DNA of 64,000 nucleotides from Rhizocola hellebori (GTDB lineage: Bacteria; Actinomycetota; Actinomycetes; Mycobacteriales; Micromonosporaceae): positions 80,352-144,351 of the forward strand of contig NZ_BONY01000008.1 in assembly GCF_016862955.1 (NCBI RefSeq), written 5' to 3'. Shown piece by piece: positions 3,369-25,641 of this stretch. How positions within the stretch are numbered: the first letter of the stretch is position 1; each line of letters starts with the position of its first letter. The notes under the pieces were generated by a model. The model had not been told where the DNA came from. It saw only the letters and a program-made list of their open reading frames with translations, and made no database searches. The position numbers and the translations under genes are program-made.

Positions 3369-3441
3369 CTCCCCTGGCGCTACAGATGTAAGCGCTGTGT
3401 AACCGGCCTTCGAAACACTGTGCCAGTCCCGATAAGCGGGG

Positions 3442-11558: not shown

Positions 11559-12715
11559 AGCTCACCCTGCGGGTCAGGCTCACCCTCATCTACACCGGCC
11601 TGTTCGCCATGTGTGGCGCCGCGATAGTGATAATTGCCTATCTTATGGTACCGAGCCTGCAGTCCGACGGCAGCAGAGTCTCGCAGCAGCAGGTCGACTT
11701 CCTGGACCTGTGCACCCGGTCGCTGGCGACGCTCAGCTCCGAGACCCAGTTCAAATGCCAGAGGGCCTACGAGGAAGGCCTCATGGCCGGCGCAGCAAGC
11801 CAGCGCGAGGCCACCCTCGAGCAGATGGTCCGGTACTCGGTCATCACTTTCGTCGTCGTCACCCTCTTCGCCGCGATCGCCGGCTGGATCCTCGCCGGAA
11901 GGGCGTTGCGGCCCGTCCATCAGCTGATCGCCGCGGCCAGAAACGCCTCGCAGCACGACCTTTCCGCCCGCGTGGCCTCCACCGGCCCCCGCGACGAGCT
12001 GCGTGAGCTGGCCGACACCTTCGACGACATGCTGGCCCGGCTGGAGGCTGCTTTCCAGAGCCAGCGCCAGTTCATCGCCAACGCCAGCCACGAGCTGCGC
12101 ACCCCGCTGACCGTGATGCGCACAGCGGTCGATGTCGTGCTGGCCAAACCGGAACCGGCTGTTGCCGAGCTGCGCGGGATGGGGAACGAAGTCCGCGCCG
12201 CAGTCACCGACGCCGAGAAACTCATCGATTCCATGCTCACCCTGGCCCGCAACGAGCATGGCCTGTCCCGCACCGAGCCAGTCGATCTGGCCACCGCCGC
12301 CGAGAACGCGCTCGACGACCTCGACACCGGCGACCGAGCCGTGCTGCCGTCGCTTCAACCCGCGATCGTCGACGGCGACGCCATCCTGCTGGAGCGGCTC
12401 ATCGCCAATCTTGTCGACAATGCCGTGCGCTACAACGACTCCCGCGGCCAAGTCTGGGTCAGCGTGCAATCGGCGGCCCCCTTCGTGCGGCTGACCGTGG
12501 CCAACACGGGCCCGGTCATCGCGCCGGAGTCCACGGCTGCGCTTCTGGAACCCTTCCGCCGGCTGAACAATCGCACCGCGCGCGACGGATTCGGGCTCGG
12601 GCTGGCGATCGTGTCCTCCATCGCGGCGGTGCACCACGGCACCGTCAGCCTGCACCCCCGGCCGGATGGCGGCCTATCCGTCGACGTCCTCCTGCCGCAA
12701 CACCGTGGCTCTTGA
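11555..12715 (+). CDS. Sensor histidine kinase
   Basis: The 386-residue protein has two membrane helices (about 8-30 and 95-118) flanking a short extracytoplasmic sensor. A HAMP domain and a HisKA domain follow, with phospho-accepting His179 in NASHELRTPLTV. The HATPase domain has the N box NLVDNAVRYN and G2 box GLGLAIVSSI; the G1 region is degenerate (VANTGPVIAPES). It pairs with the overlapping response regulator upstream. Its last 42 bp overlap tail-to-tail with lysX on the other strand, so the two C-termini are encoded by the same DNA. Confidence 0.9.
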   Translation: MKLTLRVRLTLIYTGLFAMCGAAIVIIAYLMVPSLQSDGSRVSQQQVDFLDLCTRSLATLSSETQFKCQRAYEEGLMAGAASQREATLEQMVRYSVITFVVVTLFAAIAGWILAGRALRPVHQLIAAARNASQHDLSARVASTGPRDELRELADTFDDMLARLEAAFQSQRQFIANASHELRTPLTVMRTAVDVVLAKPEPAVAELRGMGNEVRAAVTDAEKLIDSMLTLARNEHGLSRTEPVDLATAAENALDDLDTGDRAVLPSLQPAIVDGDAILLERLIANLVDNAVRYNDSRGQVWVSVQSAAPFVRLTVANTGPVIAPESTAALLEPFRRLNNRTARDGFGLGLAIVSSIAAVHHGTVSLHPRPDGGLSVDVLLPQHRGS

Positions 12716-15700
12716 CCGCGATCCGGAAGGGCGCACGAGCGGGAAAGGCAGGGTTTCCCGGATTGTCTTGGCGGTCAACAGCATCACGAGCCGGTCGACG
12801 CCGATGCCGAGCCCGCCCGTGGGTGGCATCGCAAACTCCAGCGCCTCCAGGAAATCCTCGTCGAGCTCCATCGCCTCCGGGTCGCCGCCGGTGGCCTTCA
12901 GCGATTGCGCGGTCAGGCGACGGCGCTGCTCGACCGGGTCCACCAGCTCCGAATGGGCCGTGCCCAGCTCGGTGCCGAAGGCGACCAGGTCCCAGCGTTC
13001 GGCCAGCCGCGGGTCGTCGCGGTGCTGCCGGGCCAGCGGGGATACCTCCGCCGGGAAGTCCCGGTAGAACGTCGGTGTCTTGGTGTGCGCCTCCACCAGG
13101 CGCTCGTAGAGTTCAAGGATCATCTGGCCGTGCCCCCAGGCGGGATCGAACGACACGCCCGCCGCGTTCGCCAGCTCCTGCAAGCGTGGCACCGGCGTGC
13201 CGGGGGTGACCTCTTCGCCGAGCCGGCGCGAAATGGCTTCGTTGACCGTGACTACCGGCCAGGCGCCGCCGATGTCGTACTCGGCCCCGTCGTGCACCAG
13301 AGTGGTGGTCCCCAGACCTTCGCGAGCCGCGTTCTGGATCAGGTCACGGGTCAGGTCCAGCATGGTCATGTAGTCGGCGTAGGCCTGGTACGCCTCGAGC
13401 ATGGTGAATTCGGGATTGTGCTTGAAGGACACGCCTTCGTTGCGGAAGGTGCGCCCGAGCTCGTAGAGCTTCTCCACGCCACCGACGCACAGGCGCTTGA
13501 GGTAAAGCTCGGGTGCGATGCGCAGGTAGAGCCGCATGTCGTAGGCGTTGATGTGGGTCAGGAACGGGCGCGCGTTGGCCCCGCCGTGGATGGGCTGCAG
13601 GATCGGCGTCTCCACCTCGAGGAAGTCGTTGCTGTGCAACGTTGTCCGCAACGAGTGCAGCACCGCGCCGCGCGTCCTGAGGGTTCCGCGCGACTGGGGG
13701 CTGACGATGAGGTCGAGATATCGGCGCCGCACCTTCGCCTCCGGATCGGCTAGACCCAGGTGCTTGTTAGGCAACGGATGCAGGCATTTGGCCGTCAGCA
13801 CCCACTGCTGCGCGACAATCGACTTCTCGCCTTTGCGGGAGCGGCCGACCCGGCCGGTGACGCCGATGAGATCGCCGACGTCGATCCCGTCCAGGCAGTC
13901 GGCGATGACCTGGATGTCGCCGCTCCAGTCGCGCAGCGTGGCGAACGCGATCTTCCCGTGGTCGCGGACCAGGATCACCCTTCCGGCGACCGCGACCTGC
14001 TCGTCATCTTGCACGTCCGCGATCGCGTGGGTTCGGGCGAAGCTGACCGGGTAAGGGTCGGCCAAACTGTTCAGTTTGGACAGTCGTACCTGGACCTGCT
14101 CTGGGCGCTTGGCCTCTTTTCGCTCCGGCGTGCGCGCCAGGGCGGGCAACGTCTGCGTGGGTGGCGGACCGGGCGTCAGGTGCCCGCGTTGCCAGGGCAG
14201 CACCAGGAAGCCCTCCGCGATCGCCGCCGCGACGCCGATCGTGGCCAGCTCACGCCGCTCCCGGAAACACAGGAATCTGGGTACCCACTCGGGGTGATAC
14301 TTCACGTTGGAGCGGTACAGCGACTCCAGCTGCCACCATCGCGAGAAGAAGAGCAGCAACCGCCGCCACGCGCGCAGCACCGGGCCGGCCCCTATCCGCG
14401 CTCCTTCCTCGAAGGCGGACCGGAACACGGCGAAGTTGAGCGAGATGCGCTCGATGCCCAACCGGGGCGCTTCCCTGACCACGGCCGCGACCATGAACTC
14501 CATCAGGCCGTTGCCGCTGTCGCGATCGCGTCGCATGAGGTCAAGCGACAGGCCGTTGGCGCCCCAGGGCACAAATGACAGGATCGCGGCCGGTTTACCC
14601 TGCACGTCAAGGGCCTCGACGAGCACGCAATCGCCGTCCCACGGGTCGTTGAGCCGGGACAGGGCCATCGAGAAGCCGCGCTCGGCGTCGGTGTCACGCC
14701 AGAGCTCGGCCAAGCGCTGGGCCTCTCGCATGTCCTGCGGCGAGATGGCGCTGTGCCGCCTTACCCGCGCGGTGAAACCGGCCCTCTCGATGCGGTTCAC
14801 GGCTTGACGCACCTGGCGCATGTCGCGCCCGTCGAGCTGGAAATCGCGTACGTGCAGGATCGCCTCGTCACCGAGCTCGATCACCTTGAGGCCGTGCTGC
14901 GCGTAGGCGGTCGCGCCTTCCTCCGATGCGCCCATCACCGCGGGACGCCAGCCGAACTCGCGCGCGTTGTGCAGCCAGGCCTTGATGGCGCCACTCCACG
15001 CCTCGGGGTCGCCGATCGGGTCCCCGCTGGCGAGGCTCACCCCGGCAACGGGCCGGTAGGTGAGCGCAGCCTTCCCGGTCGGCGAGAAGATCACTGACTT
15101 GTCCCGGCGGGTGGCGAAGTAGCCCAGCGAGTCGCGGTCGCCCGACCCGGCTAGCAGCTGCCGGATCTTGATTTCCTCGTCGCCGTGCAGCTCCGCAGCC
15201 TTGCGCTGGGTACGAAACAGGGTGAAGAACGCGGCAAGCAGCGCCACCGCGCCGAACAGGCCCAGCAGCAGGCTCACCCAGCGATAGCTGTGCGCCCGCT
15301 GATCGACGCGAATGTGCAGGTTGAACCCGCCGAAGACCTTCTCGGCGGCATAGGGCAGATAATCCTGCGGCTGCAACGTATTCGGGAACGTGTGCACGAG
15401 CAGATAGCCCAGCCCGAGCGAGAGACCGACCCCGAGCAGGTATACCGCCACGGCTTTGGGCAGGCTCGCCCGCTGCACCCGGGCGTTGAACTTGCGCCGC
15501 GCCAGCAGGAGGAGGGTCACAAACGTGGCGGTGACCATCGCGCTGGCGAGCACCGCCGGCTTCTCCCACCACTGCGGCGAGATCTGGTTACGTTCGAGAT
15601 CCTCGGTCCACAGCGTGCGCAGAAAGACCAGCAATGCCACCCCGAGCAGGTCGGCCATCAGCTGAAGTCCGAAGTAGACCATCATGATCCACCAGGCGAC

Positions 15701-15970
15701 CCGCTTGCGGCGGGCCGTCGCCGCGGCGAGCAGGGCCACGAACGCCGCGTAGGCAAGGTTGGCGGGGGCCGGGACGACCACGGCGTTGATGATGCGGCGG
15801 ATCGGCTGCTGCCCCATCCCGAAGTGCAGCGCAGCCAGCGCGCACAGGGCGGCGACGACGGTGAGGAGCACGGCGAACATCGTGGGCACCCGCTCGGGCC
15901 AATCACGCTTGGCAGCCCGGGAATGAGACTGCTTCCGATGCCGGGTGTCGTCTTTAGTGTCGGCGAGCAT
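12674..15970 (-). CDS. lysX: Bifunctional lysylphosphatidylglycerol synthase/lysyl-tRNA synthetase
   Basis: The 1098-residue protein has the LysX layout. About six or seven N-terminal membrane segments lie within 30-250. A DUF2156/MprF-type aminoacyl transferase domain occupies about 270-560. An OB-fold anticodon-binding domain follows (about 640-740), then a class II lysyl-tRNA synthetase core with FRNEGVSFKHNPEFTMLEAY near 841 and GIGVDRLVMLL near 1055. In mycobacteria LysX charges tRNA-Lys and transfers lysine to phosphatidylglycerol, giving resistance to cationic peptides. The chosen ATG 15970 follows gaaggt; a TTG at 16054 would add 28 residues. The final residues overlap the convergent kinase gene. 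Confidence 0.92.
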   Translation of the reverse strand: MLADTKDDTRHRKQSHSRAAKRDWPERVPTMFAVLLTVVAALCALAALHFGMGQQPIRRIINAVVVPAPANLAYAAFVALLAAATARRKRVAWWIMMVYFGLQLMADLLGVALLVFLRTLWTEDLERNQISPQWWEKPAVLASAMVTATFVTLLLLARRKFNARVQRASLPKAVAVYLLGVGLSLGLGYLLVHTFPNTLQPQDYLPYAAEKVFGGFNLHIRVDQRAHSYRWVSLLLGLFGAVALLAAFFTLFRTQRKAAELHGDEEIKIRQLLAGSGDRDSLGYFATRRDKSVIFSPTGKAALTYRPVAGVSLASGDPIGDPEAWSGAIKAWLHNAREFGWRPAVMGASEEGATAYAQHGLKVIELGDEAILHVRDFQLDGRDMRQVRQAVNRIERAGFTARVRRHSAISPQDMREAQRLAELWRDTDAERGFSMALSRLNDPWDGDCVLVEALDVQGKPAAILSFVPWGANGLSLDLMRRDRDSGNGLMEFMVAAVVREAPRLGIERISLNFAVFRSAFEEGARIGAGPVLRAWRRLLLFFSRWWQLESLYRSNVKYHPEWVPRFLCFRERRELATIGVAAAIAEGFLVLPWQRGHLTPGPPPTQTLPALARTPERKEAKRPEQVQVRLSKLNSLADPYPVSFARTHAIADVQDDEQVAVAGRVILVRDHGKIAFATLRDWSGDIQVIADCLDGIDVGDLIGVTGRVGRSRKGEKSIVAQQWVLTAKCLHPLPNKHLGLADPEAKVRRRYLDLIVSPQSRGTLRTRGAVLHSLRTTLHSNDFLEVETPILQPIHGGANARPFLTHINAYDMRLYLRIAPELYLKRLCVGGVEKLYELGRTFRNEGVSFKHNPEFTMLEAYQAYADYMTMLDLTRDLIQNAAREGLGTTTLVHDGAEYDIGGAWPVVTVNEAISRRLGEEVTPGTPVPRLQELANAAGVSFDPAWGHGQMILELYERLVEAHTKTPTFYRDFPAEVSPLARQHRDDPRLAERWDLVAFGTELGTAHSELVDPVEQRRRLTAQSLKATGGDPEAMELDEDFLEALEFAMPPTGGLGIGVDRLVMLLTAKTIRETLPFPLVRPSGSRSRATVLRQEDVDG

Positions 15971-16183
15971 GAGCACCTTCGTTCTGGTGTCCGGCGCGCT
16001 CGGGTCCGCAGCCGTTGTTACAGCCAGCCTGCGGACCCGGGGCCACGCGGTCAATCCGGTTACCCTCCCAGGTTCTTTCTGAGTCTTCGCTGAACGATGC
16101 CTGCCAGGGTGCGGGCTGACGGAAGGTTGACTGCTTGCGGCTTAGGGTCAGCGCGGATTTCCACTTCCGCAGATAATCTGAAG

Positions 16184-16981
16184 GTGATCACACGACGGGG
16201 GTTGATGGGTGGCGGCCTTGCCGCTGGCGTCGGGGCGGGTTTGGCGCTGTCCATCGAGCGTCAGCTCAACCAGTACGGGTCGGAAAGGCTGCCGCTTGGC
16301 GGTGGCTACGCGGCCGCCGGTGATGGGTGGCACGCCTCCGGCAGCGGCCTGGTCCGGACCATTTGGCACGTGCCCACCACGAAGCCGTGGGTGGCGCTGA
16401 CCTTTGACGACGGTCCCGGTCCGAAGTGGACACCCCGGGTGCTCGACGCGTTGGACCGCGCTGACGCGCAGGCCACGTTCTTTGTGGTGGGCAAGCGGTT
16501 GGTGCAGCACGCTGCCGTCGTCCGGGACAGGTTGCAGCGACACGAGGTCGGCAACCACACCTGGTCGCACTGCGAGCTCGGCAAGCTCGACGCCGAGAAG
16601 GCCTTCGACCAGCTCGACCGCTGCCACAACGCGATCAAGCAGGTGCTGGGCCGCGACGCCACCTTGATGCGCCCGCCGTGGGGTCATCTCGGCGGTGCGG
16701 CGCTGGTGGCCGCCGACCGCATGGGCTACGACGTGACGATGTGGTCCTATGTGATGCCTGAGCAGAACCCCGACGGGCTGGTCGACGACGTGTGCGCGAA
16801 CGCCAAGCCGGGCAGCATCCTGCTCGCCCACGATGTGGGCCGCGACAGCCGGCTCGCCGTTGTCGATCGCCTCGACCGCATTGTGGCGGGCCTGCGAGCC
16901 GCGGGCCTGGAGTTGGTGACCGTGTCACAGCTGATGGCGGCACGGTCGGCCGATGCTTCCGCGGTGGAGGCCCGGGCGTGA
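16184..16981 (+). CDS. Secreted polysaccharide deacetylase (NodB-homology family)
   Basis: The NodB motifs are intact. TFDDGP (about 73-78) provides the catalytic base and metal Asp, and HTWSH (about 125-129) the metal His pair. RPPWGH and LLAHDVG supply the remaining active-site loops. The N-terminus VITRRGLMGGGLAAGVGAGL looks like a twin-arginine signal, which favours GTG 16184; an ATG at 16097 would add 29 residues. Such enzymes deacetylate peptidoglycan or other N-acetylated glycans at the surface. The neighbouring lysX also makes the envelope more cationic, but the genes are divergent. Confidence 0.85.
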   Translation: MITRRGLMGGGLAAGVGAGLALSIERQLNQYGSERLPLGGGYAAAGDGWHASGSGLVRTIWHVPTTKPWVALTFDDGPGPKWTPRVLDALDRADAQATFFVVGKRLVQHAAVVRDRLQRHEVGNHTWSHCELGKLDAEKAFDQLDRCHNAIKQVLGRDATLMRPPWGHLGGAALVAADRMGYDVTMWSYVMPEQNPDGLVDDVCANAKPGSILLAHDVGRDSRLAVVDRLDRIVAGLRAAGLELVTVSQLMAARSADASAVEARA

Positions 16982-17040
16982 CCCCCACCTCCGGCGGCAG
17001 CGTCACGTTGACGGTGGCGGCGGCGGTGTGTTCGGATGGC

Positions 17041-17131
17041 GGGGTTCCAGCGTGAGGGGAAGCCGGTCGAAGCCCGGCACTGGCCCGCAGCCGTAGACCC
17101 GCCAGGGTGAGTCGGATTACCTGCGCTGGAA
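17041..17131 (+). promoter_or_regulatory. Cobalamin riboswitch upstream of the ECF transporter operon
   Basis: The B12-box core is clear: gaggggaagccggtcgaag, then cggcactggcccgcagccgt, then gagtcggattacctgc. A closing helix pairs ttccagcg (17045-17052) perfectly with cgctggaa (17124-17131). The element sits about 100 nt before the EcfT start, in the same orientation. Cobalamin riboswitches normally repress when adenosylcobalamin is bound. This assigns B12 or a corrinoid as the transporter's probable substrate. Confidence 0.92.
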
Positions 17132-17228
17132 GTGTTGTCCAGCGTCGTCGAGGTCCGCGGCGCGGAGACCGGCCTCGCCATGGTTGGGATCTGCACCGGG
17201 CGCCGATCACCCCCAGCCGGAGATGTTC

Positions 17229-18386
17229 ATGGTGGCCGCTTCCGCCCTTTTGCCCAGGGCTTTGCATCCGGTGGCCTGGTGGGTGTGGGCGATCTGCCTC
17301 GCCGCGGCGGCGAGTCAGACCAGCAATCCGCTGCTGCTGGCCCTGATCTTCGGTGTGCTCGGGCTGGTCGTCACCGCGCGGCGCACCGACGCCCCGTGGG
17401 CGCGGGCCTTCAAGTATTACCTGATCATGGCATTGATCGTCATCGCTATCCGAGTGGTGTTCCGATCGGTGTTCGGCACGGGCATCACCGCGCAGGACAC
17501 GATCCTGTTCCGCCTGCCGCGGCTGGACATGCCGGATTGGTATGCGGGGATTCAGATCGGCGGCCCGGTGTCATTGCAGGCGACCCTGGCTGCCACCATC
17601 GACGGGATGCGGCTGGCGTGCCTGCTGTGCTGCATCGGCGCGGCCAACAGCCTGGCCAACCCAAAGCGGGCGCTGAAGGTGCTGCCCGGCGCCCTCTACG
17701 AGCTCGGGGTGGCCGTGACGGTGGCGCTGTCGGTGGCCCCGCAGCTGGTGGAAAGCGTGCAGCGGGTGGCCCGGGCCCGCCGGTTGCGAGCCGGCAAATC
17801 CCGCGGGTTGCGGGCGCTGCGGGCGATCGCGCTTCCCGTGCTGCATGACGCGCTGGACCGTTCGCTGCGACTGGCGGCCGCCATGGACTCGCGCGGCTAC
17901 GGCCGCACCGGCACGGCAAGCGCAAGGTCACGGCGGCTGACCGGGACGCTGATGCTCGCCGGGATGGCCGGTCTGTGCGTGGGCGTCTACGGCCTGCTCG
18001 ACCCGGGGACGCCCCGGGCGATGGGCCTGGCCGGATTCGCCGCGGGCACGGCCTTGTCCGTCGCGGGCCTGTATGTCGGTGGCCGCCGGGTGTCCCGAAG
18101 CCGTTACCGGCCCGATCCGTGGCGGTGGCCGGAGTGGACGGTCGCCGGTTGCGGTCTGCTGACCGCCTTTGTTTTCTATCTGGGTACAGGTTACGACCCG
18201 GCCACCCTCAACCCCGGCCTCTATCCGCTGCAGTGGCCCACCCTGCCGCTGATACCGGCCGCCGCGATTCTCGTCTCGGCGACAGCGGCGTTCGCCTCGC
18301 CGCCGCCTCCCGCGCCGCCACGCTCCACGCCACCCGCACAGCGCCGCAGCCCGCCCGCCGCCACCGTTCAAGGAGCGTCGAAGTGA
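17229..18386 (+). CDS. ECF transporter transmembrane coupling protein EcfT (CbiQ family)
   Basis: The 385-residue protein has N-terminal helices (HPVAWWVWAICLAAAASQ...LLLALIFGVLGLVV). Two coupling-helix signatures that contact the ATPases follow: VARARRLRAGKSRG and AAMDSRGYGR. Further C-terminal helices make it longer than minimal EcfT proteins. The start at ATG 17229 is favoured by ggag six nt upstream. The stop overlaps the ATPase start (GTGA). It follows a cobalamin riboswitch and should transmit ATP hydrolysis to the S component encoded two genes downstream. Confidence 0.9.
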   Translation: MVAASALLPRALHPVAWWVWAICLAAAASQTSNPLLLALIFGVLGLVVTARRTDAPWARAFKYYLIMALIVIAIRVVFRSVFGTGITAQDTILFRLPRLDMPDWYAGIQIGGPVSLQATLAATIDGMRLACLLCCIGAANSLANPKRALKVLPGALYELGVAVTVALSVAPQLVESVQRVARARRLRAGKSRGLRALRAIALPVLHDALDRSLRLAAAMDSRGYGRTGTASARSRRLTGTLMLAGMAGLCVGVYGLLDPGTPRAMGLAGFAAGTALSVAGLYVGGRRVSRSRYRPDPWRWPEWTVAGCGLLTAFVFYLGTGYDPATLNPGLYPLQWPTLPLIPAAAILVSATAAFASPPPPAPPRSTPPAQRRSPPAATVQGASK

Positions 18387-20020
18387 TCCGTTTCGACCGG
18401 GTGAGCATCACCTACGAAGGCGCGCCGGAACCGGTGTTGCGCGAGGTCGACCTGGACCTCGGTGAGGGCGAGCTGTGCCTGGTCGTCGGGCATACCGGCA
18501 CGGGCAAGTCGACGCTGCTCGGCGCGATCAACGGGCTGGTGCCCCACTTCACCGGCGGCACCCTCGACGGCCGGGTCACCGTGCACGGCCGCGACACGGC
18601 CACCCACCCGCCGCGCGAATTCGCCGACCTGGTCGGGGTGGTCGGGCAGGACCCGGTCGCCGGGTTCGTCACCGACACGGTCGAGGAGGAACTGGCCTAC
18701 GGCATGGAACAGCTCGCGCTCGGGCCGGCGGTGATGCGTACCCGGGTGGAAGAAACCCTGGATCTGTTGGGGCTGGCCGATTTGCGGCATCGCGGGCTGC
18801 ACGAGCTGTCCGGCGGGCAGCAGCAGCGCGTCGCGATAGGCGCGGCACTGACCGCCCATCCGCGGGTGCTGGTGCTCGACGAGCCCACCTCCGCGCTGGA
18901 CCCGGTCGGCGCCGAGGACGTGCTGGCGGCGATCACCCGCCTGGTGCACGACCTCGGTGTCACCGTGGTGATGGCCGAACACCGCCTGGAACGGGTAATC
19001 CCTTACGCCGACAGGCTCATCTGGCTTCGCGGCGACGGCAGCGCGACCATCGGCCAGCCCGCCGTTCTGCTGCAGGAGGCGACCTCGGTCCCGCCGATCG
19101 TCCACCTTGGACGGCTGGCCAAATGGAACCCTTTGCCACTGTCGGTACGTGACGCCCGCCGCCACGCGCCCGAGCTTCGCCGCCGCCTTCCTGAACAGGC
19201 GATCACGGCACACCGCCAGGACCGCACCCAGGCGGGCGAAGCCTTGGCGGCCAAGGACATCATCGTGCGGCACGGGCCCGTGGTGGCGGTGGCGGGGGTC
19301 GGCCTCCAGCTCAAGCCGGGCCAGATCACCGCGCTTATGGGCCGCAACGGATCCGGAAAGTCGTCGCTGCTGTGGGCATTGCAGGGCTCGGGAAGACGCG
19401 ACGGTGGGGCTGTTGCTGTTGTCGCCGCTGACGGTCAGCACCTGGATCCGGGCAAGGTCAAAGCCGCCGTGGCCCGCCGGCTGGTCGGCCTGGTGCCCCA
19501 GACCGCCTCGGACCTTCTGTATCACGACACTGTCGACGCGGAACTGGCCCAGGCCGACCGCGATGGAGCAACCCCTGGCACGGCAAGGACTGTGCTGGAT
19601 CGCATGGTGCCCGGCATCGCCGGCGGCGATCACCCGCGCGATCTGTCGGCCGGGCAGCAGCTGGCTCTGGTGCTGGCCATCCAGCTGGCGGTGACGCCGG
19701 GGGTGGTGCTGCTCGACGAGCCGACCAGGGGGCTGGACTATCAGGCAAAGGCGGGGCTGGCCGCCACCCTCGACCAGCTCGCCCAGGCGGGGCGCGCGGT
19801 CGTGGTGGCGACCCATGATGTCGAGTTCGCGGCGACCGTGGCCGACCGCGTCATCGTCATGGCCGAGGGGTCGGTGATCGCCGACGGGCCGGCGCCCACC
19901 GTGCTCACCGCTTCCCCGGCTTTCGCGCCGCAGATCGCGAAAATCCTTTCCCCGCTGCCCTATCTGACCCTGGCTCAGGTCAGCGCTGCGCTACGTGAGG
20001 AGAAGGATGATGGCTGGTAA
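18383..20020 (+). CDS. ECF transporter ATPase, two EcfA domains fused
   Basis: The 545-residue protein contains two ABC nucleotide-binding domains in tandem. Domain 1 has Walker A GHTGTGKSTLL (from residue 36), signature LSGGQQQRVAIG and Walker B VLVLDEPTSALDP. Domain 2 has Walker A GRNGSGKSSLL (from about 320), the non-canonical signature LSAGQQLALVLAI and Walker B VVLLDEPTRGLD. Start is GTG 18383 with an aaggag site. A fused EcfA-EcfA' takes the place of the usual two-gene pair. It is coupled to EcfT upstream and overlaps the S-component gene downstream. Confidence 0.93.
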   Translation: MIRFDRVSITYEGAPEPVLREVDLDLGEGELCLVVGHTGTGKSTLLGAINGLVPHFTGGTLDGRVTVHGRDTATHPPREFADLVGVVGQDPVAGFVTDTVEEELAYGMEQLALGPAVMRTRVEETLDLLGLADLRHRGLHELSGGQQQRVAIGAALTAHPRVLVLDEPTSALDPVGAEDVLAAITRLVHDLGVTVVMAEHRLERVIPYADRLIWLRGDGSATIGQPAVLLQEATSVPPIVHLGRLAKWNPLPLSVRDARRHAPELRRRLPEQAITAHRQDRTQAGEALAAKDIIVRHGPVVAVAGVGLQLKPGQITALMGRNGSGKSSLLWALQGSGRRDGGAVAVVAADGQHLDPGKVKAAVARRLVGLVPQTASDLLYHDTVDAELAQADRDGATPGTARTVLDRMVPGIAGGDHPRDLSAGQQLALVLAIQLAVTPGVVLLDEPTRGLDYQAKAGLAATLDQLAQAGRAVVVATHDVEFAATVADRVIVMAEGSVIADGPAPTVLTASPAFAPQIAKILSPLPYLTLAQVSAALREEKDDGW

Positions 20021-20897
20021 GCCACAGGCGATCGGCATTCCCACTCGCGCGGGCGCGTCGATCGCGATGGCCGCGTTCATCGGTCTGGTGGCCTTCGCGT
20101 GGCCTTTTCTGGCCGCGCCGGGCGCCATCGGCTCGACGCAGACCGCGCCGCTGATGTTCGGTGTGCTGCTGCTGATCATCGTGGCGGTGGTCTTCTCGGA
20201 GATAGCCGAAGGGCGCATCGACGCCAAAGCGCTTGCCATGCTTGGTGTTCTGTCGGCCATCAACGCCGCGCTGCGCCCGCTGGGAGCGGGCACAGCCGGG
20301 ATCGAAACGGTGTTCTTCCTGCTGGTGCTCGCCGGTCGCGTGTTCGGGCCCGGGTTCGGGTTCACGCTGGGCTGCACCTCGCTTTTCGCCTCGGCTCTGC
20401 TGACCGGCGGAGTGGGGCCTTGGATGCCGTACCAGATGTTCGGCTGTGCCTTCGTCGGCATGCTCGCCGGGATGCTGCCCAGGGCGTCCGGCAAGGCCGA
20501 GCTGGCCATGCTCGCCGGCTATGCGGCCTTCGCCGGGTACCTGTTCGGGTTCCTGCTCAACCTGTCGTTCTGGCCGTTCGCTCTCGACCCGGCCAGCTCG
20601 ATCGCCTACCAGCCAGGCTTGGCGCCCTTGGAGCAGCTGCAGCGATACCTGACCTTCTTCACGGTGACCTCGCTTGGCTGGGACACCGGCCGGGCGGTCA
20701 CCACCGCCATCCTCGTGGCGCTGGCCGGCCCGGCCGTGCTCGGGGCGTTGCGCCGAGCATCCCGGCGCGCCAACTTCAATCCCCGCACCGTTTTCCAGCC
20801 GCTCACGGGTGGGCACGACGATCAGCGCCTGCGCCGCGCCGACGGCTCCGTCCTGCCGGAAGCTACCCCGAGCGCGGTCGACCGAGCAGATCGGTGA
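20010..20897 (+). CDS. ECF transporter substrate-binding S component, probable cobalamin specificity (CbrT-like)
   Basis: The 295-residue membrane protein has about six helices: AAFIGLVAFAWPFLAAPGAI, LMFGVLLLIIVAVVF, a segment with NAALRPLGAG, GFGFTLGCTSLFASALLTGG, and others. This is the compact fold of ECF S components, with a hydrophilic C-terminal tail. The gene overlaps the ATPase end, with gaggag before tandem ATG codons at 20007 and 20010. Substrate assignment rests mainly on the upstream cobalamin riboswitch and adjoining B12-regulated genes, not on identified ligand residues. Confidence 0.85.
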   Translation: MAGKPQAIGIPTRAGASIAMAAFIGLVAFAWPFLAAPGAIGSTQTAPLMFGVLLLIIVAVVFSEIAEGRIDAKALAMLGVLSAINAALRPLGAGTAGIETVFFLLVLAGRVFGPGFGFTLGCTSLFASALLTGGVGPWMPYQMFGCAFVGMLAGMLPRASGKAELAMLAGYAAFAGYLFGFLLNLSFWPFALDPASSIAYQPGLAPLEQLQRYLTFFTVTSLGWDTGRAVTTAILVALAGPAVLGALRRASRRANFNPRTVFQPLTGGHDDQRLRRADGSVLPEATPSAVDRADR

Positions 20898-21138
20898 GCC
20901 GGCACCGCAGGCACGGCTGCCTTACCTGGCACGTGCAGGGGCTGGCCTCGACCTGTTCCGCGATGGCCGCCACCACGGCCAGACTGGCCGTCAGCTCACC
21001 CCGCAACCGCGACGATCGTGCGTTGGCGGCACCGGCCTGTCTGCGCGCGGCGTCAAGCTTGGCGTGTTCTTGCGGCGTCAGCAGAATGAACTCCCGCCCG
21101 TCGACCTCGGCCCGGCGCGGCTGTTCCGCTCCAGCCAA
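20863..21138 (-). CDS. Small cysteine-containing protein of unknown function
   Basis: The 91-residue product has a short beta-like N-terminus (VDGREFILLTPQEHAKLDAA) and a helical middle. It ends in a Cys cluster, CTCQVRQPCLRC, that could bind Zn or a thiol-reactive group. It overlaps the 3' end of the S-component gene by 35 bp, tail to tail. I do not recognise the family. Its place within the B12 island may be accidental. Confidence 0.6.
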   Translation of the reverse strand: MAGAEQPRRAEVDGREFILLTPQEHAKLDAARRQAGAANARSSRLRGELTASLAVVAAIAEQVEASPCTCQVRQPCLRCRLTDLLGRPRSG

Positions 21139-21202
21139 AGCTGCCTCCCCAGGTCCATTGACGCGGCGGGCCGGAATCCGGCCCGCCGCGCTTACCCCCC
21201 AA

Positions 21203-22231
21203 TCAGCAGGTCAGACTCGGTGCACCCGAGGAAGATCCGGCCGAGGTGAGATGACGCAGGCCCGGCCCGGTCAGGCCGAGAATTCCCTGTGCGGTGGCAC
21301 GCGCCGCTGTCGCCGGGTCGAAACCGGTGGCGTCAAAGGCGATTGCCCCACGTTGCGCCGATGGTGCGGAGCAGCCCGACTGCAGCGACAGGACGAATTG
21401 GCGCGCCTTCGCCGCCGCTGCCAGCCGTAGGGCCTCACGCAACGCCTGACCGGCCACGCCGGTGCTGTTGGCGTTGGGCGTGCCCAGGGCCGAGAAGCTG
21501 CCGTCCGGCCCCTGGACGCTGAGCAGCCACTGGACAGCGGGCGCGGCCTGCGCCCGATTCCCGGTGGCGATCAGTGCCTGGACTGCCAGGGCGGTGGCAT
21601 CGGTGTCGCTGGTGCAGGTCGCCTCGCCGAGGAACACCGGGAAACCCCCGTCGGCGCAACGACTTGCCACCACGAAGGACACCGCCGATTCCGGGGCGCC
21701 CGCGGCGGTGCGCTCCAACGCGATGATCGCCAGGGACTGGCCGAACATGTTGCTGAAGTCACCGAACTCCGACCGATCCGAGAACCGGCCCGACGGTGTC
21801 AGCAGTGCCCGAAGCCGCGCAAGCAGATCCTGCCCCCCGAAAGACGCCGGGTTGCCGCCCCGAACCTGCACCGCAAGCGCCAGCTTGGCCGTCGAACCCG
21901 AATACGACTCGGTCACGCCGTCGCCGGTGTAGCCGGAAAGGATTTCCGGCCGAGCCAGCCAGGTCAATGCCCGTGAACCGTAGTCGTTCGCGGTTTTGGC
22001 CGCCGCGAAAGCGAAAATCGCATCGATGGTCAGGCCCTGGTCGGGGAAGATCATCCCGCCGAAGTCGACCTCGAATCTCTCCCCGTCCACCATCTGCCGG
22101 GCGAGCCAGCCGGCCGCTGCGTCGGGCCGAGTGGTCGGATGCCCGGTCGCCGCGGCAGGTGCTGCCCCCATCGTGACGGTGAGCAGCACTCCGGTCGCGA
22201 CCAGGCTGAGATGACGCAGACTGCGAACCAT
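21203..22231 (-). CDS. Secreted alpha/alpha-barrel repeat protein under cobalamin riboswitch control (free alpha half)
   Basis: The 342-residue protein has a signal peptide (LSLVATGVLLTVTMGAAPAAA) and then prenyltransferase/squalene-oxidase-type repeats. The repeat marks are SDTDATALAVQALIATG, QGPDGSFSALGTPNANSTG and VAGQALREALRLA. The fold is an alpha6/alpha6-like toroid, as in the N-terminal domain of intrinsic factor and transcobalamin. No membrane anchor follows and the tail ends in Cys. No terpene-cyclase catalytic Asp cluster is seen. A cobalamin riboswitch lies directly upstream. I infer a secreted corrinoid-binding half-protein; binding itself is untested. Confidence 0.75.
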   Translation of the reverse strand: MVRSLRHLSLVATGVLLTVTMGAAPAAATGHPTTRPDAAAGWLARQMVDGERFEVDFGGMIFPDQGLTIDAIFAFAAAKTANDYGSRALTWLARPEILSGYTGDGVTESYSGSTAKLALAVQVRGGNPASFGGQDLLARLRALLTPSGRFSDRSEFGDFSNMFGQSLAIIALERTAAGAPESAVSFVVASRCADGGFPVFLGEATCTSDTDATALAVQALIATGNRAQAAPAVQWLLSVQGPDGSFSALGTPNANSTGVAGQALREALRLAAAAKARQFVLSLQSGCSAPSAQRGAIAFDATGFDPATAARATAQGILGLTGPGLRHLTSAGSSSGAPSLTC

Positions 22232-22284
22232 TGTCGTTGACTGTCCTTTCTGGCCCGAACCAGACAGCCGGAGGTGGTGACGGC

Positions 22285-22430
22285 GCGCCCTGGCACGCTT
22301 CTCCGGCTCCCTGATTCCTTGAGCCACTTCAGGATGGGAACTACCGCGGTGAGCCGTCGGGCTGCCGCCGATGGGGCGGTCACCGTTGCGGGCCAGCGCC
22401 GGAGTCTCACCGGCTTGACTCATCCGCTGA
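22285..22430 (-). promoter_or_regulatory. Cobalamin riboswitch upstream of the free alpha/alpha-repeat gene
   Basis: On the minus strand the core reads aagccggtgagactccgg, then cgctggcccgcaacggtg (plus-strand 22381-22416). The distal element gagccggagaagcgtgcc lies at about 22292-22309. The stretch ccgttgcgggccagcgccgg is identical to that in the riboswitch near 25150. It fills most of the 203-bp gap between two minus-strand genes, so the downstream gene can be controlled independently of the operon above. The outer boundaries are approximate. Confidence 0.85.
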
Positions 22431-22434
22431 ACAG

Positions 22435-23235
22435 CTAGGTGTCGGATGTCGCTCGCCGTCTTCGCCGGATCACCAGCGCCGTCAACGCCAACGCGCACAA
22501 CAGGATCGCTGCGGCGATGGCTCCCCATGGCGTGCTCGTCCGGCGGATCGCTGGCTCGGCGATCGCGGTGACGATGCCGGAACCAGCTGGCGTGCCCGGC
22601 TGCGTCGCTTCCGGTGTGGCCGTATCGCTTGGCGCTGCTGGAGTTGTCGCGGTCGGTGCCGCTGGCACGGCCGCCGGCTGCCCCCCACCACCAATGGGCG
22701 GCTTGGTCGTCGCAGCGGGCGGCGGGGGTGGCTGGGGCGGCGGCTGAGGTCTGTGCGGCGCGACGCCGGGTGGCGGTACCGAGGAAGAGGTCTTGTCCTT
22801 CGCAAAAGACCAGCCCTCGAAACTGCCGGCCGGCGGGGTCCGGCTGAGCACACCGAAGTCGCTGTACTTCCAGGTGCCGTCGTTGGGCGCGTACCAGTAG
22901 GACCAGTAGGCAGAGGCGGGCGGGGTGTTCAGGCACGCCTCGGTATCCGCGCCCGGCTTGCCTTGGATCCGGCAGATGAACGCCTTGCCCCAGCGCTGGG
23001 TTCCCTGCACCGTGAACCCGGCGTTCTCCAGCGCTGTCAGCCCATTGGCCTGGGCGCCCGGTGCACAGCGCACGACCGTCCCTCCGCCGAGCTCGTTGAA
23101 GTCCACCACCACGGTGACACCGTTGGTGTCGGGACAATATCCGGGCAGGCCGTCGACCGCGGCCGCCGACGCGGCAACGGGTGCCACCGTCGCCGCGGCG
23201 GCAAGCATCACCGCGATCGCGACCCGCCGGATCAT
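22435..23235 (-). CDS. Membrane-anchored DUF4430 (transcobalamin C-terminal-like) protein
   Basis: The 266-residue protein has a signal peptide (VAIAVMLAAAATVAPVAAS), then a DUF4430-type beta domain (about 35-155). The domain contains GVTVVVDFNELGGGTVVRC, AGFTVQGTQRWGKAFICRI and the aromatic run ASAYWSYWYAPNDGTWKYS. A Pro/Ala-rich linker follows. The protein ends in a transmembrane helix (GAIAAAILLCALALTALVI) and a positively charged RRRRR tail. The same beta fold forms the C-terminal half of intrinsic factor. The start overlaps the upstream anchored alpha-protein stop (ATGA). Confidence 0.8.
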   Translation of the reverse strand: MIRRVAIAVMLAAAATVAPVAASAAAVDGLPGYCPDTNGVTVVVDFNELGGGTVVRCAPGAQANGLTALENAGFTVQGTQRWGKAFICRIQGKPGADTEACLNTPPASAYWSYWYAPNDGTWKYSDFGVLSRTPPAGSFEGWSFAKDKTSSSVPPPGVAPHRPQPPPQPPPPPAATTKPPIGGGGQPAAVPAAPTATTPAAPSDTATPEATQPGTPAGSGIVTAIAEPAIRRTSTPWGAIAAAILLCALALTALVIRRRRRATSDT

Positions 23236-24533
23236 CGCACCGAAACCCGGCGTCGCCGGGCCAATGCCAGCAACAGCATTCCCGCCAGCACGACAGCGGC
23301 TCCCACCCCGGCCATGGTGAACGCCGCCGGCCCCGTCACGGGCAATCCGCCACCGCTTCCTGGCGCCGATGCCGAAGGCGATGGCGAGGATGGCGAGGAT
23401 GGCGTAGGCGGCGAGTCGACGCCGATGCGATGCATGGGCACCAACGTGAAGGCCAGCAGGGCCTGGGTGGTGGCACGGTGCCAGGGATCCATCTCGTCGA
23501 TGAAACAGTTTTCAAACTCGGGCTTTACCTCGCAGATTCCGTCTGCCGTGCCATCTGCGAAGTCTGCCGTGCCTTTGGCGATCGCTCCCACATGAGCGCT
23601 GGCGGCCCCCGCGTTGGCGGTGGTCAGCTGAAGGGTGCGGATGAACGCCGCCGCCTTGGACGCCTGGTCCACCTTGCCACCCGCGTAAAGCGCTTGCGCG
23701 GCAAGGCCTGTGCTGTTGGTGCTGGGGACCGGACTGGCCCACCGGTCGAAGAAGCTGCCGTTGGGCTGCTGCATGCCCGCCAGCCACGCCACCGCTTTAT
23801 CGGCCTGCTGCTTCTTGCCAGCCCCATATAACGCCTGGATCGCCATGGCGGTGCCGTCGACGTGCGGTTCCGGCCAGAGCTTCTTGACGTCGTCGTTGGC
23901 GTCGGCCGCTGACGCCTGGCAGTTACCGATCGGGCCGGCCGTTGGGAACAGGGGGAAGCCGCCCTCCGCGCACTGCTGGGACAGCAGATACTGCACCACG
24001 TTGTCAGGCACCCCACCCGAACCGGCCAAGCCAAGCACCGCAAGGCTCTGGTCGAACATGTTGCCGCCGTTGCCGTCGGAGTCGTGGATCCAGCCACCCG
24101 CGTCTATCCGGTCCAGCGTTCGCTGGCGCATGTTGTGGCCACCAAAGCTGAGCGGATCGCCGCCGGAGATGACCGAGGCGAAGAGCACCTTCGCCGTGGC
24201 ACCACCGATGATCAATCCCGCTCCCCACGACGGGGTGGTGTAGGAATCCACATTCGCGGCAATGTTTTGCGAAAGTGCCTGTGCCAGCGGCTGTTCCAGC
24301 TTCGACGCGCGCACGGCGATCAGCATGTCGATGGTCATGCCCCAGTCGGGGTCGGCGGGCGTCGCCGGGTCCCAGGCGGGCGCCGGCAATGCACCGTTGA
24401 CCAGCTCGCCTTCCAGCCACTTGACGCCTTTGCTCCAAGAGCCGTCGCTGTCCCACGCGGGCGCCGCCTGAGCCGGAGCGGCGATGGCGACGGCCAGCCC
24501 GGCCGCCGCCAGGATGCTGAAAAGCTTGCGCAT
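23232..24533 (-). CDS. Sortase-anchored (LPVTG) alpha/alpha-repeat protein, transcobalamin alpha-domain-like
   Basis: The 433-residue protein has a signal peptide (KLFSILAAAGLAVAIAAPAQA) and then alpha/alpha-toroid repeats (about 35-350). Repeat marks include PHVDGTAMAIQALYGAG and PNGSFFDRWASP, followed by STNSTGLAAQALYAGG. A Ser/Pro-rich spacer leads to a complete cell-wall sorting signal: LPVTG at about 397-401, a hydrophobic helix and a RRRR tail. It is the middle gene of a three-gene operon. The alpha protein is thus fixed to peptidoglycan while its probable beta partners are encoded on both sides. Confidence 0.8.
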   Translation of the reverse strand: MRKLFSILAAAGLAVAIAAPAQAAPAWDSDGSWSKGVKWLEGELVNGALPAPAWDPATPADPDWGMTIDMLIAVRASKLEQPLAQALSQNIAANVDSYTTPSWGAGLIIGGATAKVLFASVISGGDPLSFGGHNMRQRTLDRIDAGGWIHDSDGNGGNMFDQSLAVLGLAGSGGVPDNVVQYLLSQQCAEGGFPLFPTAGPIGNCQASAADANDDVKKLWPEPHVDGTAMAIQALYGAGKKQQADKAVAWLAGMQQPNGSFFDRWASPVPSTNSTGLAAQALYAGGKVDQASKAAAFIRTLQLTTANAGAASAHVGAIAKGTADFADGTADGICEVKPEFENCFIDEMDPWHRATTQALLAFTLVPMHRIGVDSPPTPSSPSSPSPSASAPGSGGGLPVTGPAAFTMAGVGAAVVLAGMLLLALARRRRVSVR

Positions 24534-25003
24534 CACGGCGCCACACTCGGCGCGGCACCCGAACCGAAGGCCCAGCCCTCCACCGTGCCCGGGGCCGGGT
24601 TGTAGGACGAGGCCCCCGCGCTGCTGTAGGACCAGGTGCCGCCCGGTGTGGCGTGCCAGTAGGACCAGTAGGCCGACGCCGACGGCGTGTTCAGGCAAGG
24701 CTCGGTCGCCGCAGTGGGCAAACCGTTGATACGGCAGACAAATGCCAGACCCCATCGCTTGGTACCGGTAATGGTGAACCCGGCGCCGGTAAGCGCGGTC
24801 AGCCCAGAGGCCGGATCGCCGAGCGCACACGCCCGGGTCACCCCGCCGCCCAATGAGGCGAAGTCGACGACCACCGTCACACCGGACGTACCAACGCAAC
24901 CCGCCGCATAAGCGGCCCTGGGAGAAGGATCGGCGACCGCGACACCGACGGAAAGAACGGCAGCAAGAACAAGGCTCAACGCGAGCCGCAGGGACCGAGC
25001 CAT
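24533..25003 (-). CDS. Secreted DUF4430 (transcobalamin C-terminal-like) protein, unanchored
   Basis: The 156-residue protein has a signal peptide (LRLALSLVLAAVLSVGVAVA) followed by a single DUF4430-type beta domain. The domain reads GVTVVVDFASLGGGVTRAC, AGFTITGTKRWGLAFVCRI and SASAYWSYWHATPGGTWSYS. These align directly with the anchored paralogue at 22435, but no linker or membrane helix follows. It is the first gene behind the third cobalamin riboswitch. Its stop overlaps the next start by one base (TGATG), so the beta and alpha proteins are probably made in coupled amounts. Confidence 0.8.
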   Translation of the reverse strand: MARSLRLALSLVLAAVLSVGVAVADPSPRAAYAAGCVGTSGVTVVVDFASLGGGVTRACALGDPASGLTALTGAGFTITGTKRWGLAFVCRINGLPTAATEPCLNTPSASAYWSYWHATPGGTWSYSSAGASSYNPAPGTVEGWAFGSGAAPSVAP

Positions 25004-25037
25004 TTCAGGCCTTTCTCGGCCCAGGTCAGAAGCCAAG

Positions 25038-25080
25038 CGCCCCCGCGCTCGGTCTCCTCCCGTGAGCCACGACGGGGGCG
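25038..25080 (-). promoter_or_regulatory. Hairpin between the cobalamin riboswitch and its first gene
   Basis: Plus-strand cgcccccg (25038-25045) is the exact complement of cgggggcg (25073-25080), enclosing a 27-nt loop. On the minus-strand transcript that loop contains cacgggaggagaccg, a purine-rich Shine-Dalgarno-like run. It lies between the riboswitch aptamer and the start codon at 25003, so it is a candidate expression platform or terminator. The mechanism is inferred from position only. Confidence 0.45.
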
Positions 25081-25084
25081 GAGA

Positions 25085-25195
25085 ACAAAGCGAACGCAGC
25101 AGGTACTCGGACTCGCCACTCTCGAAAGGGTGGCCTACCGTTGCGGGCCAGCGCCGGAATTTGACCGGACTTCCCCCACACGCGATCGCATCGAT
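25085..25195 (-). promoter_or_regulatory. Cobalamin riboswitch upstream of the secreted beta/alpha/beta operon
   Basis: The minus-strand core reads ggggaagtccggtcaaattc, cggcgctggcccgcaacggt and gagtccgagtacctgct. This is a near-ideal B12-box arrangement. The outer helix can form between gcgatcgc (25182-25189) and gcgttcgc (minus strand, about 25089-25096) with one mismatch. It shares a 20-nt identical core with the riboswitch near 22400. It should control the three-gene secreted operon from 25003 down to 22435. Confidence 0.92.
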
Positions 25196-25246
25196 TCAAT
25201 TTGGTGACCCGATTGTTCCCACGCGCCGGCTGCCGTGTCAATTCAC

Positions 25247-25641
25247 TCACCTTCCATGTGGACCGTGGGTGACGACCTCAATCGATGGCAGGACCATGCG
25301 CAGCAGTGCGCCACCTTCGTTCGGCAGGGCCTGGGCGGTGCCCCCGTGGGCCTGCGCGACCTGCCGGACGATGGCCAGACCGAGCCCCGAGCCGGGATGG
25401 GCGCGGGCTGCGGGTGAGCGGTAGAAACGGTCGAAGACGAACGCCAGATCGCTGTCGGGAATGCCTGGGCCGCAATCGGCGACCTCGAGCACCCCGCCGC
25501 CAACGTTGATCTTGACCCCGTCGCCACGGAACCTGGCTTGCCCGCACCGGGCGCCGGGGTCGGCCCCGCCGCCGACGCTGTCCCGGTCGCGGCCAAGGCG
25601 ATCGCCGCCGCGGTGGCCACGACCAGCCGTGTTCGTTTCAT
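25247..25641 (-). pseudogene. Chimeric remnant: signal-peptide start joined out of frame to a histidine-kinase ATPase end
   Basis: Two unrelated coding remnants abut here. From ATG 25641 one frame encodes a clean signal peptide (MKRTRLVVATAAAIALAATG...) and about 37 sensible residues, until roughly 25533. From about 25537 to the stop at 25247 a different frame encodes the C-terminal half of a HATPase domain: G1 box DCGPGIPDSD, F box FDRFYRS, G2 box GSGLGLAIVRQV. The kinase's sensor, HAMP and HisKA parts are absent. A deletion that fused a secreted-protein gene to a two-component kinase gene explains this best. The breakpoint lies near 25510-25540. Confidence 0.7.

What the first reader, a model, noticed from the sequence alone, without database searches (positions are those of the whole stretch)
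17041..25195. B12 island: three cobalamin riboswitches controlling an ECF importer and a split intrinsic-factor-like surface system
Seen directly: three B12-box riboswitch cores, one before EcfT-EcfAA-S and two before secreted-protein transcription units. Known: DUF4430 is, to my recollection, the C-terminal domain type of transcobalamin/intrinsic factor, whose other half is an alpha6/alpha6 toroid. Inferred: here the two halves are separate proteins that assemble on the cell surface, capture corrinoids and hand them to the ECF importer. A Gram-positive surface B12 trap assembled from animal-carrier-like halves would be new to me as a described mechanism.
Basis: partly seen in the sequence, partly recalled or inferred. 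Interest (0 to 1): 0.93.

Follow-up and report, generated by a model that had tools for sequence, protein, structure and literature searches.

The report
Split bacterial intrinsic-factor-like B12 trap
Beside a likely vitamin-uptake pump, and behind three RNA elements of the B12-switch kind, this bacterium carries genes for two pairs of likely secreted proteins that resemble the two halves of our own vitamin B12 carriers made as separate pieces, and they are predicted to clasp B12 outside the cell and pass it to the pump.

Summary
Two cobalamin riboswitches pass Rfam's gathering score; the third falls short (28.3 of 31.5 bits) but scores 60.5 bits with a model built without it. Three of the genome's four RF00174 matches lie here; the fourth precedes BtuF/C/D-like genes.

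The layout recurs. A cobalamin riboswitch lies upstream of beta in 28 of 34 beta-positive genomes and before a beta or toroid gene in 76 of 77 named-record loci; 69 of 77 have beta near both a toroid and EcfT. Some relatives fuse the halves, in either order.

Predicted mechanism: split, transcobalamin-like corrinoid capture feeding an ECF importer. Binding is untested. Burroughs et al. 2007 predicted the principle, chiefly in low-GC Gram-positives; separately encoded halves, riboswitches and a soluble plus an anchored pair make this a new variant.

The parts
17033..17142 (+). Cobalamin riboswitch 1, before the ECF importer genes (R1 match 17019-17142)
   Evidence: RF00174 35.4 bits, above gathering; R1 85.0 bits (R1 was built with it)
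17223..18386 (+). EcfT, transmembrane coupling protein (387 aa)
   Evidence: PF02361 CbiQ 44 bits, cut-off 25; weak PDB matches to EcfT chains, best E 0.0073
18383..20020 (+). EcfAA, two ECF ATPase domains in one chain (545 aa); start overlaps the end of EcfT
   Evidence: PF00005, 2 stretches; NCBIfam ECF_ATPase_2 261.3 bits, below its 330 cut-off
19995..20897 (+). EcfS, putative substrate-binding S component (300 aa)
   Evidence: TIGR04518 folate-family S component, 24.4 bits, cut-off 60; PDB chains 5d0y E 0.058 and folate S component 5d3m E 0.15; conserved after EcfT-EcfA in relatives
21203..22231 (-). Toroid B, predicted secreted alpha/alpha toroid, no C-terminal anchor (342 aa)
22300..22416 (-). 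Cobalamin riboswitch 3, before toroid B (R1 match 22331-22458)
   Evidence: RF00174 28.3 bits, below gathering; R1 60.5 bits, E 3.5e-16, not among the sequences R1 was built from
22435..23235 (-). Beta B, transcobalamin-beta-like domain with long linker and C-terminal hydrophobic helix (266 aa); ATGA overlap with toroid A
   Evidence: 52% identical to beta A; C-terminal helix; not modelled itself
23232..24533 (-). Toroid A, predicted secreted alpha/alpha toroid with LPVTG motif and C-terminal helix (433 aa); TGATG overlap with beta A
   Evidence: PF00432 21.5 bits, below its 26.5 cut-off; 35% identical to toroid B; LPVTG and helix; not modelled itself
24533..25003 (-). Beta A, transcobalamin-beta-like domain, no anchor (156 aa)
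25081..25199 (-). Cobalamin riboswitch 2, before beta A - toroid A - beta B
   Evidence: RF00174 33.4 bits, above gathering; R1 92.4 bits (R1 was built with it)
25212..25241 (-). Promoter-like site TTGACA-18-AACAAT just upstream of riboswitch 2
   Evidence: Consensus scan of 16900-25300, 1 found against 0.4 expected in shuffles; not evidence of function

Best explanation
The island encodes a predicted split, transcobalamin-like corrinoid-capture system, two beta-domain proteins and two toroid proteins made as separate and likely secreted chains, that would feed the likely vitamin importer of the ECF type encoded beside it, with a cobalamin-type riboswitch in front of each of its three units. 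Shown by the calls: the riboswitch matches, the predicted folds of beta A and toroid B, the homology of the beta family to DUF4430, the pairing and occasional fusion of the halves in relatives, and the recurrence of the layout. Inferred: when B12 is scarce the switches let the units be made. A beta domain and a toroid then close on one corrinoid as the two domains of transcobalamin do, and the ligand itself holds the two chains together. Because the halves are not tethered they can part again, so the corrinoid can be released to EcfS without proteolysis. Gene order and anchors in relatives suggest one unanchored pair (beta A with toroid B) and one anchored pair (beta B with a membrane helix, toroid A with LPVTG).
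For: Riboswitches. The Rfam model finds one within 5 kb upstream on the same strand of a beta gene in 28 of 34 beta-positive genomes, against 0.065 beta-riboswitch pairs expected by chance. Beta fold. Homology to DUF4430: P 7.4e-8 over 102 columns, toroid control P 0.29. Toroid fold. Physical link: of 137 beta ORFs in 77 loci, 115 have a toroid within 1.5 kb on the same strand and 7 share an ORF with one; ORFs with the toroid first in L039, L040, L041, L048, L063. ECF link: EcfT within 6 kb of beta in 70 of 77, toroid and EcfT both in 69 of 77. Host need: no CbiC and no CobN match, but 10 B12-binding-domain matches, 8 over the cut-off. Mechanism precedent: human transcobalamin alpha (with CD320) and beta domains, expressed separately, co-elute only when cyanocobalamin is present, and separate expression lowered the affinity (PMC5599065, passages).
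Against: No binding, assembly or localisation was tested, and no complex was modelled. The toroid is closer in fold and sequence to squalene/terpene cyclases than to transcobalamin. No Foldseek match of beta reaches E 0.1, and beta profiles find no carrier in the PDB by sequence. The S component is only weakly like folate S components, so its substrate is not shown. Over the phylum sample, beta-positive genomes are not poorer in CbiC overall (9 of 34 against 66 of 212, P 0.69); a deficit appears only when stratified by class (P 0.009; strata set by hand after seeing the data). No upstream riboswitch was found in 6 of 34 genomes, and 15 of 137 beta ORFs have no toroid within 1.5 kb on their strand.
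Confidence: 0.8

Rival explanations
1. The beta protein alone is the corrinoid receptor that serves the ECF importer, and the toroid is a separate cell-wall protein that does not close over the ligand.
For: The isolated human transcobalamin beta domain binds cobalamin on its own (PDB 5np4, listed; PMC5599065, passages). Four of 77 loci have no toroid within 6 kb of beta, and 15 of 137 beta ORFs none within 1.5 kb on the same strand. Burroughs et al. also report stand-alone bacterial beta domains (passage).
Against: A toroid neighbours beta in 115 of 137 cases and shares an ORF with it in 7 and in five further loci, in both orders. Three of the four loci without a toroid (L139, L143, L158) are cut short on one side by a contig end (lengths).
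Confidence: 0.12
2. The island takes up another B12-related ligand, such as cobalt or incomplete corrinoids, rather than complete cobamides; the riboswitches only report B12 status.
For: CbiQ and CbiO names come from cobalt transport; cobalamin riboswitches also control cobalt transporters (PMC3766115, passages). EcfS specificity is unknown.
Against: No CbiC and no CobN match in this draft genome, so cobalt for de novo corrin synthesis is probably not needed. The beta fold is closest to the B12 carriers. Incomplete corrinoids remain possible.
Confidence: 0.06
3. The toroids are secreted terpene or lipid cyclases that happen to be B12-regulated, as some database names suggest.
For: Closest folds and sequences are squalene-hopene and drimenyl diphosphate synthases; several relatives are named prenyltransferase/squalene oxidase repeat protein or terpene cyclase.
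Against: The class II cyclase motif DxDD (motif recalled) is absent in 45 of 45 rows of the close alignment, which holds both window toroids; of 23 diverse toroids 5 have the string, by eye not at the matching site. Pairing and fusion with the transcobalamin-like beta domain argue otherwise.
Confidence: 0.02

Closest known systems
Animal intrinsic factor, transcobalamin and haptocorrin
   Different: Here the halves are separate genes, duplicated, two of four anchored, preceded by riboswitches and next to an ECF importer.
SLBB / transcobalamin-like proteins with CbiO and CbiQ (Burroughs et al. 2007, PMC1796856; outline, passages and section 7 part 1 seen)
   Same: Secreted beta-grasp domains, often with a toroid and a Gram-positive anchor, with ECF-type transport genes and a second paralogue; predicted B12 scavenging on the cell surface.
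   Different: They place the clade in low-GC Gram-positives, planctomycetes and, less often, euryarchaea, describe fusions with toroids as the common form (stand-alone beta domains also noted) and, in the parts seen, do not mention riboswitches or separately encoded toroid partners.
ECF-CbrT vitamin B12 transporter of Lactobacillus delbrueckii (PMC5997447; passages seen)
   Same: An ECF module, proposed here for B12 import.
   Different: The only two PDB chains matched by the S component at E up to 10 are 5d0y and the folate S component 5d3m; the ATPases are one chain; extracellular carrier-like genes are added.
acI freshwater actinobacterial ECF module preceded by cobalamin riboswitches (PMC5301498; passages seen)
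   Same: Riboswitch-preceded putative cobalamin ECF importer in Actinobacteria.
   Different: The passages seen do not mention toroid or beta proteins.
Pfam PF28005 (precomputed on most beta relatives listed)
   Same: Covers the same protein family.
   Different: Its name and description could not be seen: the accession is not in the library held here.

Membership tests
Rfam RF00174 cobalamin riboswitch | Covariance-model score at or above gathering, elements 1 and 2 | tested here: met
   35.4 and 33.4 bits against 31.5
Rfam RF00174 cobalamin riboswitch | Covariance-model score at or above gathering, element 3 | tested here: not met
   28.3 bits; but 60.5 bits, E 3.5e-16 with actinobacterial model R1, so described as a cobalamin-type element
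Transcobalamin / intrinsic factor / haptocorrin carriers | Beta-grasp ligand-binding domain of the carrier fold | tested here: met
Transcobalamin / intrinsic factor / haptocorrin carriers | Alpha/alpha toroid domain | tested here: met
   Toroid B model: toroid superfamily fold, transcobalamin E 3.9e-5 at Foldseek rank 33; not specifically carrier-like
Transcobalamin / intrinsic factor / haptocorrin carriers | Both domains in one chain | tested here: not met
   Separate genes in the window; in one ORF only in some relatives
Transcobalamin / intrinsic factor / haptocorrin carriers | High-affinity cobalamin binding | not testable with these tools
   No binding assay and no complex model
Pfam DUF4430 (PF14478) | Match above curated cut-off | tested here: not met
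   No match in the window beta proteins or in the genome; homology shown by profile comparison
NCBIfam SCO2321_fam / SCO2322_fam | Match above curated cut-off | tested here: not met
   Toroid B 121.8 of 300, toroid A 53.1 of 300; beta A 28.6 of 85, beta B 23 of 85: distant kin
ECF transporter | EcfT and paired ATPases | tested here: met
   PF02361 44 bits; two ABC_tran stretches
ECF transporter for B12 (CbrT type) | B12-specific S component | tested here: inconclusive
   Weak folate-family S-component matches only
Class II terpene cyclases | DxDD motif (recalled) | tested here: not met
   Absent in 45 of 45 rows of A4, both window toroids included

The most novel reading that the evidence does not exclude
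A two-tier, ligand-glued B12 relay: a secreted heterodimer (beta A with toroid B) roams like a bacterial haptocorrin or a protein siderophore, closes around free corrinoids, and passes them to a wall- and membrane-anchored heterodimer (beta B with toroid A) that opens at the ECF importer. Splitting the carrier would be how bacteria escape the near-irreversible grip that forces animals to digest theirs, and animal carriers would be the tethered version of the same device.
Probability: 0.3. Interest if true: 0.88.

Novelty: new variant of a known kind. Interest (0 to 1): 0.72.

Why it matters
Human B12 carriers hold their ligand so tightly that release requires proteolysis (PMC5997447, passage). 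A naturally split version would be another answer to the release problem and would make the origin of intrinsic factor and transcobalamin testable in bacteria. It gives a likely function to a large family (2228 beta relatives at E <= 0.001 among the 7994 candidates scored) that databases carry as hypothetical protein, peptidase, terpene cyclase or flagellar hook-length control protein (names in the lists), and it marks a probable extracellular route of B12 competition among actinomycetes, including antibiotic-producing genera (recalled).

Tried and rejected
Terpene-cyclase reading: rejected on the missing DxDD motif and the pairing with beta. Direct Pfam identification as DUF4430 failed and was replaced by profile comparison: the narrow beta alignment A5 gave only P 0.0022, probability 13%; the wider A8 gave P 7.4e-8, probability 94.5%. 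PDB sequence searches with beta profiles found no carrier; the DUF4430 alignment itself found transcobalamin only weakly (E 0.16 and 0.28). Loss of B12 synthesis as a marker: no overall association, only a stratified one. In the 50 entries shown for the toroid by VIA-align no carrier appears; other toroids fill that list, so the absence is not evidence. PtaRNA1-like hairpin at 21132-21193: E 0.083, taken as chance. R1 match at 29827-29927 (16.1 bits, E 0.0039): taken as chance. PF28005, precomputed on many relatives, is not in the library held. Ten literature searches (in one search only 20 of 46 papers were listed) showed no account of this actinobacterial system beyond the papers named; closed-access papers and preprints are not held, so absence from print is not claimed.

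Rows left out: A8 took the beta stretches over 90 residues with domain E under 1e-4 from L037-L065; one search left out beta ORFs fused to a toroid and beta domains under 60 bits or under 100 residues, and its tree resolves few forks; one search counted domains over 60 bits only; neighbourhoods were fetched for 31 of the 33 other beta-positive genomes (not G172, G023). The best 80 of 363 named-record matches were kept by the tool. One search printed several proteins out of frame; coordinates were corrected before use.
Full report
WHAT IS THERE. The window holds three cobalamin-type riboswitches. RF00174 finds 17033-17142 (+, 35.4 bits) and 25081-25199 (-, 33.4 bits) above the gathering score and 22300-22416 (-, 28.3 bits) below it. 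A covariance model (R1) built from 14 actinobacterial sequences, which include the first two window elements but not the third, gives 85.0, 92.4 and 60.5 bits; in its alignment 6 of the 11 predicted pairs have at least one sequence with both sides changed and the pair kept. The 10.77-Mb draft assembly has four RF00174 matches at E <= 0.001: three here, the fourth on a 5-kb contig 34 bases before genes resembling BtuF, BtuC and BtuD (scores below the curated cut-offs).

GENES. Plus strand: EcfT (17223-18386), a two-domain EcfA (18383-20020), EcfS (19995-20897). Minus strand, behind riboswitch 2: beta A (25003-24533), toroid A (24533-23232), beta B (23235-22435), joined by TGATG and ATGA overlaps (sequence). 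Behind riboswitch 3: toroid B (22231-21203). Toroid A ends in LPVTG plus a hydrophobic helix, beta B in a hydrophobic helix; beta A and toroid B have neither. All four N-termini read like signal peptides by eye; no predictor was run.

IT IS A CONSERVED SYSTEM. Of 246 genomes drawn from the phylum, 34 have a beta match at E <= 0.001. In 28 of these 34 an Rfam cobalamin riboswitch lies within 5 kb upstream on the same strand; 0.065 such pairs are expected by chance. Of the six without, three have no RF00174 match at all, one has beta near a contig start, and two are weak beta hits. Neighbourhoods were fetched for 31 of the 33 other beta-positive genomes; ten of the 31 (L037, L042, L044-L047, L049, L056, L057, L066) read riboswitch-toroid-beta-EcfT-EcfA-EcfS, and several more are fused or cut variants. 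In a pattern search of named genome records 363 stretches encoded a relative; the best 80 (77 loci, chosen for similarity to beta, so not a random sample) were kept: Micromonospora, Salinispora, Dactylosporangium, Streptomyces, Saccharothrix, Kribbella, Phycicoccus and others, and one Chloroflexi metagenome bin. In 69 of 77, beta lies within 6 kb of both a toroid and EcfT. R1 finds 155 riboswitches in 76 of 77 loci; 118 of 155 have a beta or toroid as the first recognised gene within 900 bases, 36 have no recognised gene there and 1 has EcfA; 76 of 77 loci have at least one before beta or toroid, L127 has none. ORF starts in these maps are the first possible start codon, so 5' ends are over-long.

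SPLIT AND FUSED. Of 137 beta ORFs in the 77 loci, 115 have a separate toroid within 1.5 kb on the same strand (103 toroid-beta, 12 beta-toroid), 7 are in one ORF with a toroid, 15 have none. The seven fused ORFs have beta first, five of them with two or more toroid stretches; five loci of the other set have the toroid first, the order of transcobalamin. Fusion in both orders argues that the halves act together.

TWO TIERS. The commonest set in a locus (20 of 77) is one beta with and one without a C-terminal helix, one LPxTG toroid and one unanchored toroid, which is the window's own set. On a beta tree of 132 rows the anchored or unanchored state needs 11 changes against about 44 in shuffles, so the state is mostly inherited, although the tree is poorly resolved. 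Typical Micromonospora loci read toroid-beta-toroid-beta-EcfT-EcfA-EcfS; the window has the same seven genes rearranged. The pairing of beta A with toroid B and beta B with toroid A is inferred from this.

HOST. The genome has no CbiC and no CobN match but 10 B12-binding-domain matches, 8 over the cut-off, and GATase_3 matches compatible with late corrinoid salvage. It therefore likely depends on outside corrinoids; the assembly is a draft. Across the sample CbiC matches occur in 9 of 34 beta-positive and 66 of 212 beta-negative genomes (P 0.69); stratified by class there is a deficit (P 0.009), but the strata were set by hand after seeing the data. The family thus also occurs in likely B12 makers.

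HOW IT LIKELY WORKS. Cobalamin riboswitches are OFF switches (PMC11477304, passage), so the units would be made when B12 is low. Human transcobalamin alpha (with CD320) and beta domains, expressed separately, co-elute only when cyanocobalamin is present, and separate expression lowered the affinity (PMC5599065, passages). Human carriers practically do not let go and release requires proteolysis (PMC5997447, passage). A split carrier would be held together by its ligand and could open again at EcfS. For the window's proteins every step of this paragraph is inference.

WHAT IS KNOWN. Burroughs et al. 2007 (PMC1796856; outline, passages and section 7 part 1 seen) predicted that secreted transcobalamin-like SLBB proteins, often fused to toroids and encoded with CbiO and CbiQ, scavenge B12; they place the clade in low-GC Gram-positives, planctomycetes and, less often, euryarchaea, note stand-alone beta domains too, and suggest that paralogues form surface complexes. 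A freshwater actinobacterial study reports an ECF module behind cobalamin riboswitches as putative cobalamin transporter (PMC5301498, passages). The idea is therefore not new. The separately encoded halves as the prevailing form in the actinobacterial loci sampled, the riboswitch linkage, the soluble-plus-anchored pairs and the kinship of the SCO2321/SCO2322-like families to the animal carriers did not turn up in the ten searches made. The family names SCO2321 and SCO2322 come from NCBIfam. A newer Pfam family, PF28005, is precomputed on most beta relatives listed, but its description could not be seen. That the window's host belongs to Micromonosporaceae is inferred from its nearest named relatives.

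Noticed in passing
L068 (G000:C166) 645-3406: The genome's fourth cobalamin riboswitch stands directly before genes resembling BtuF, BtuC and BtuD, so all four RF00174 matches found in this genome precede likely B12-uptake or B12-carrier genes.
   Followed up: partly
L050 7104-10124, L053 7033-10059, L054 6613-9810: EcfA, EcfS and EcfT matches lie in one ORF of about 1000 residues next to beta, in three genomes where no RF00174 match was found.
   Followed up: no
L103 4346-7264, L138 12250-15372, L147 7173-9995, L161 13390-16551, L165 12713-15817: Single ORFs with a beta domain first and two or more toroid stretches after it, unlike the one toroid and one beta of animal carriers.
   Followed up: no
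L041 7953-10781: One ORF with a toroid followed by two beta domains.
   Followed up: no
L157: A Chloroflexi metagenome bin carries riboswitch-toroid-beta-EcfT-EcfA, perhaps by transfer or a binning error.
   Followed up: no
L038 about 16481-16627 (G162): A classic Pfam DUF4430 match lies about 6 kb downstream of the SCO2322-like beta, so both branches of the beta family occur in one locus.
   Followed up: partly
12674-16054: The gene beside the island is LysX, lysylphosphatidylglycerol synthetase fused to lysyl-tRNA synthetase (1526.9 bits).
   Followed up: no
21132-21193: A strong G+C-rich hairpin just after the stop of toroid B, between convergent units; possibly a terminator; PtaRNA1 match E 0.083 taken as chance.
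   Followed up: no
protein lists: Database names for relatives include peptidase, terpene cyclase/mutase and flagellar hook-length control protein FliK, which look like misannotations.
   Followed up: no
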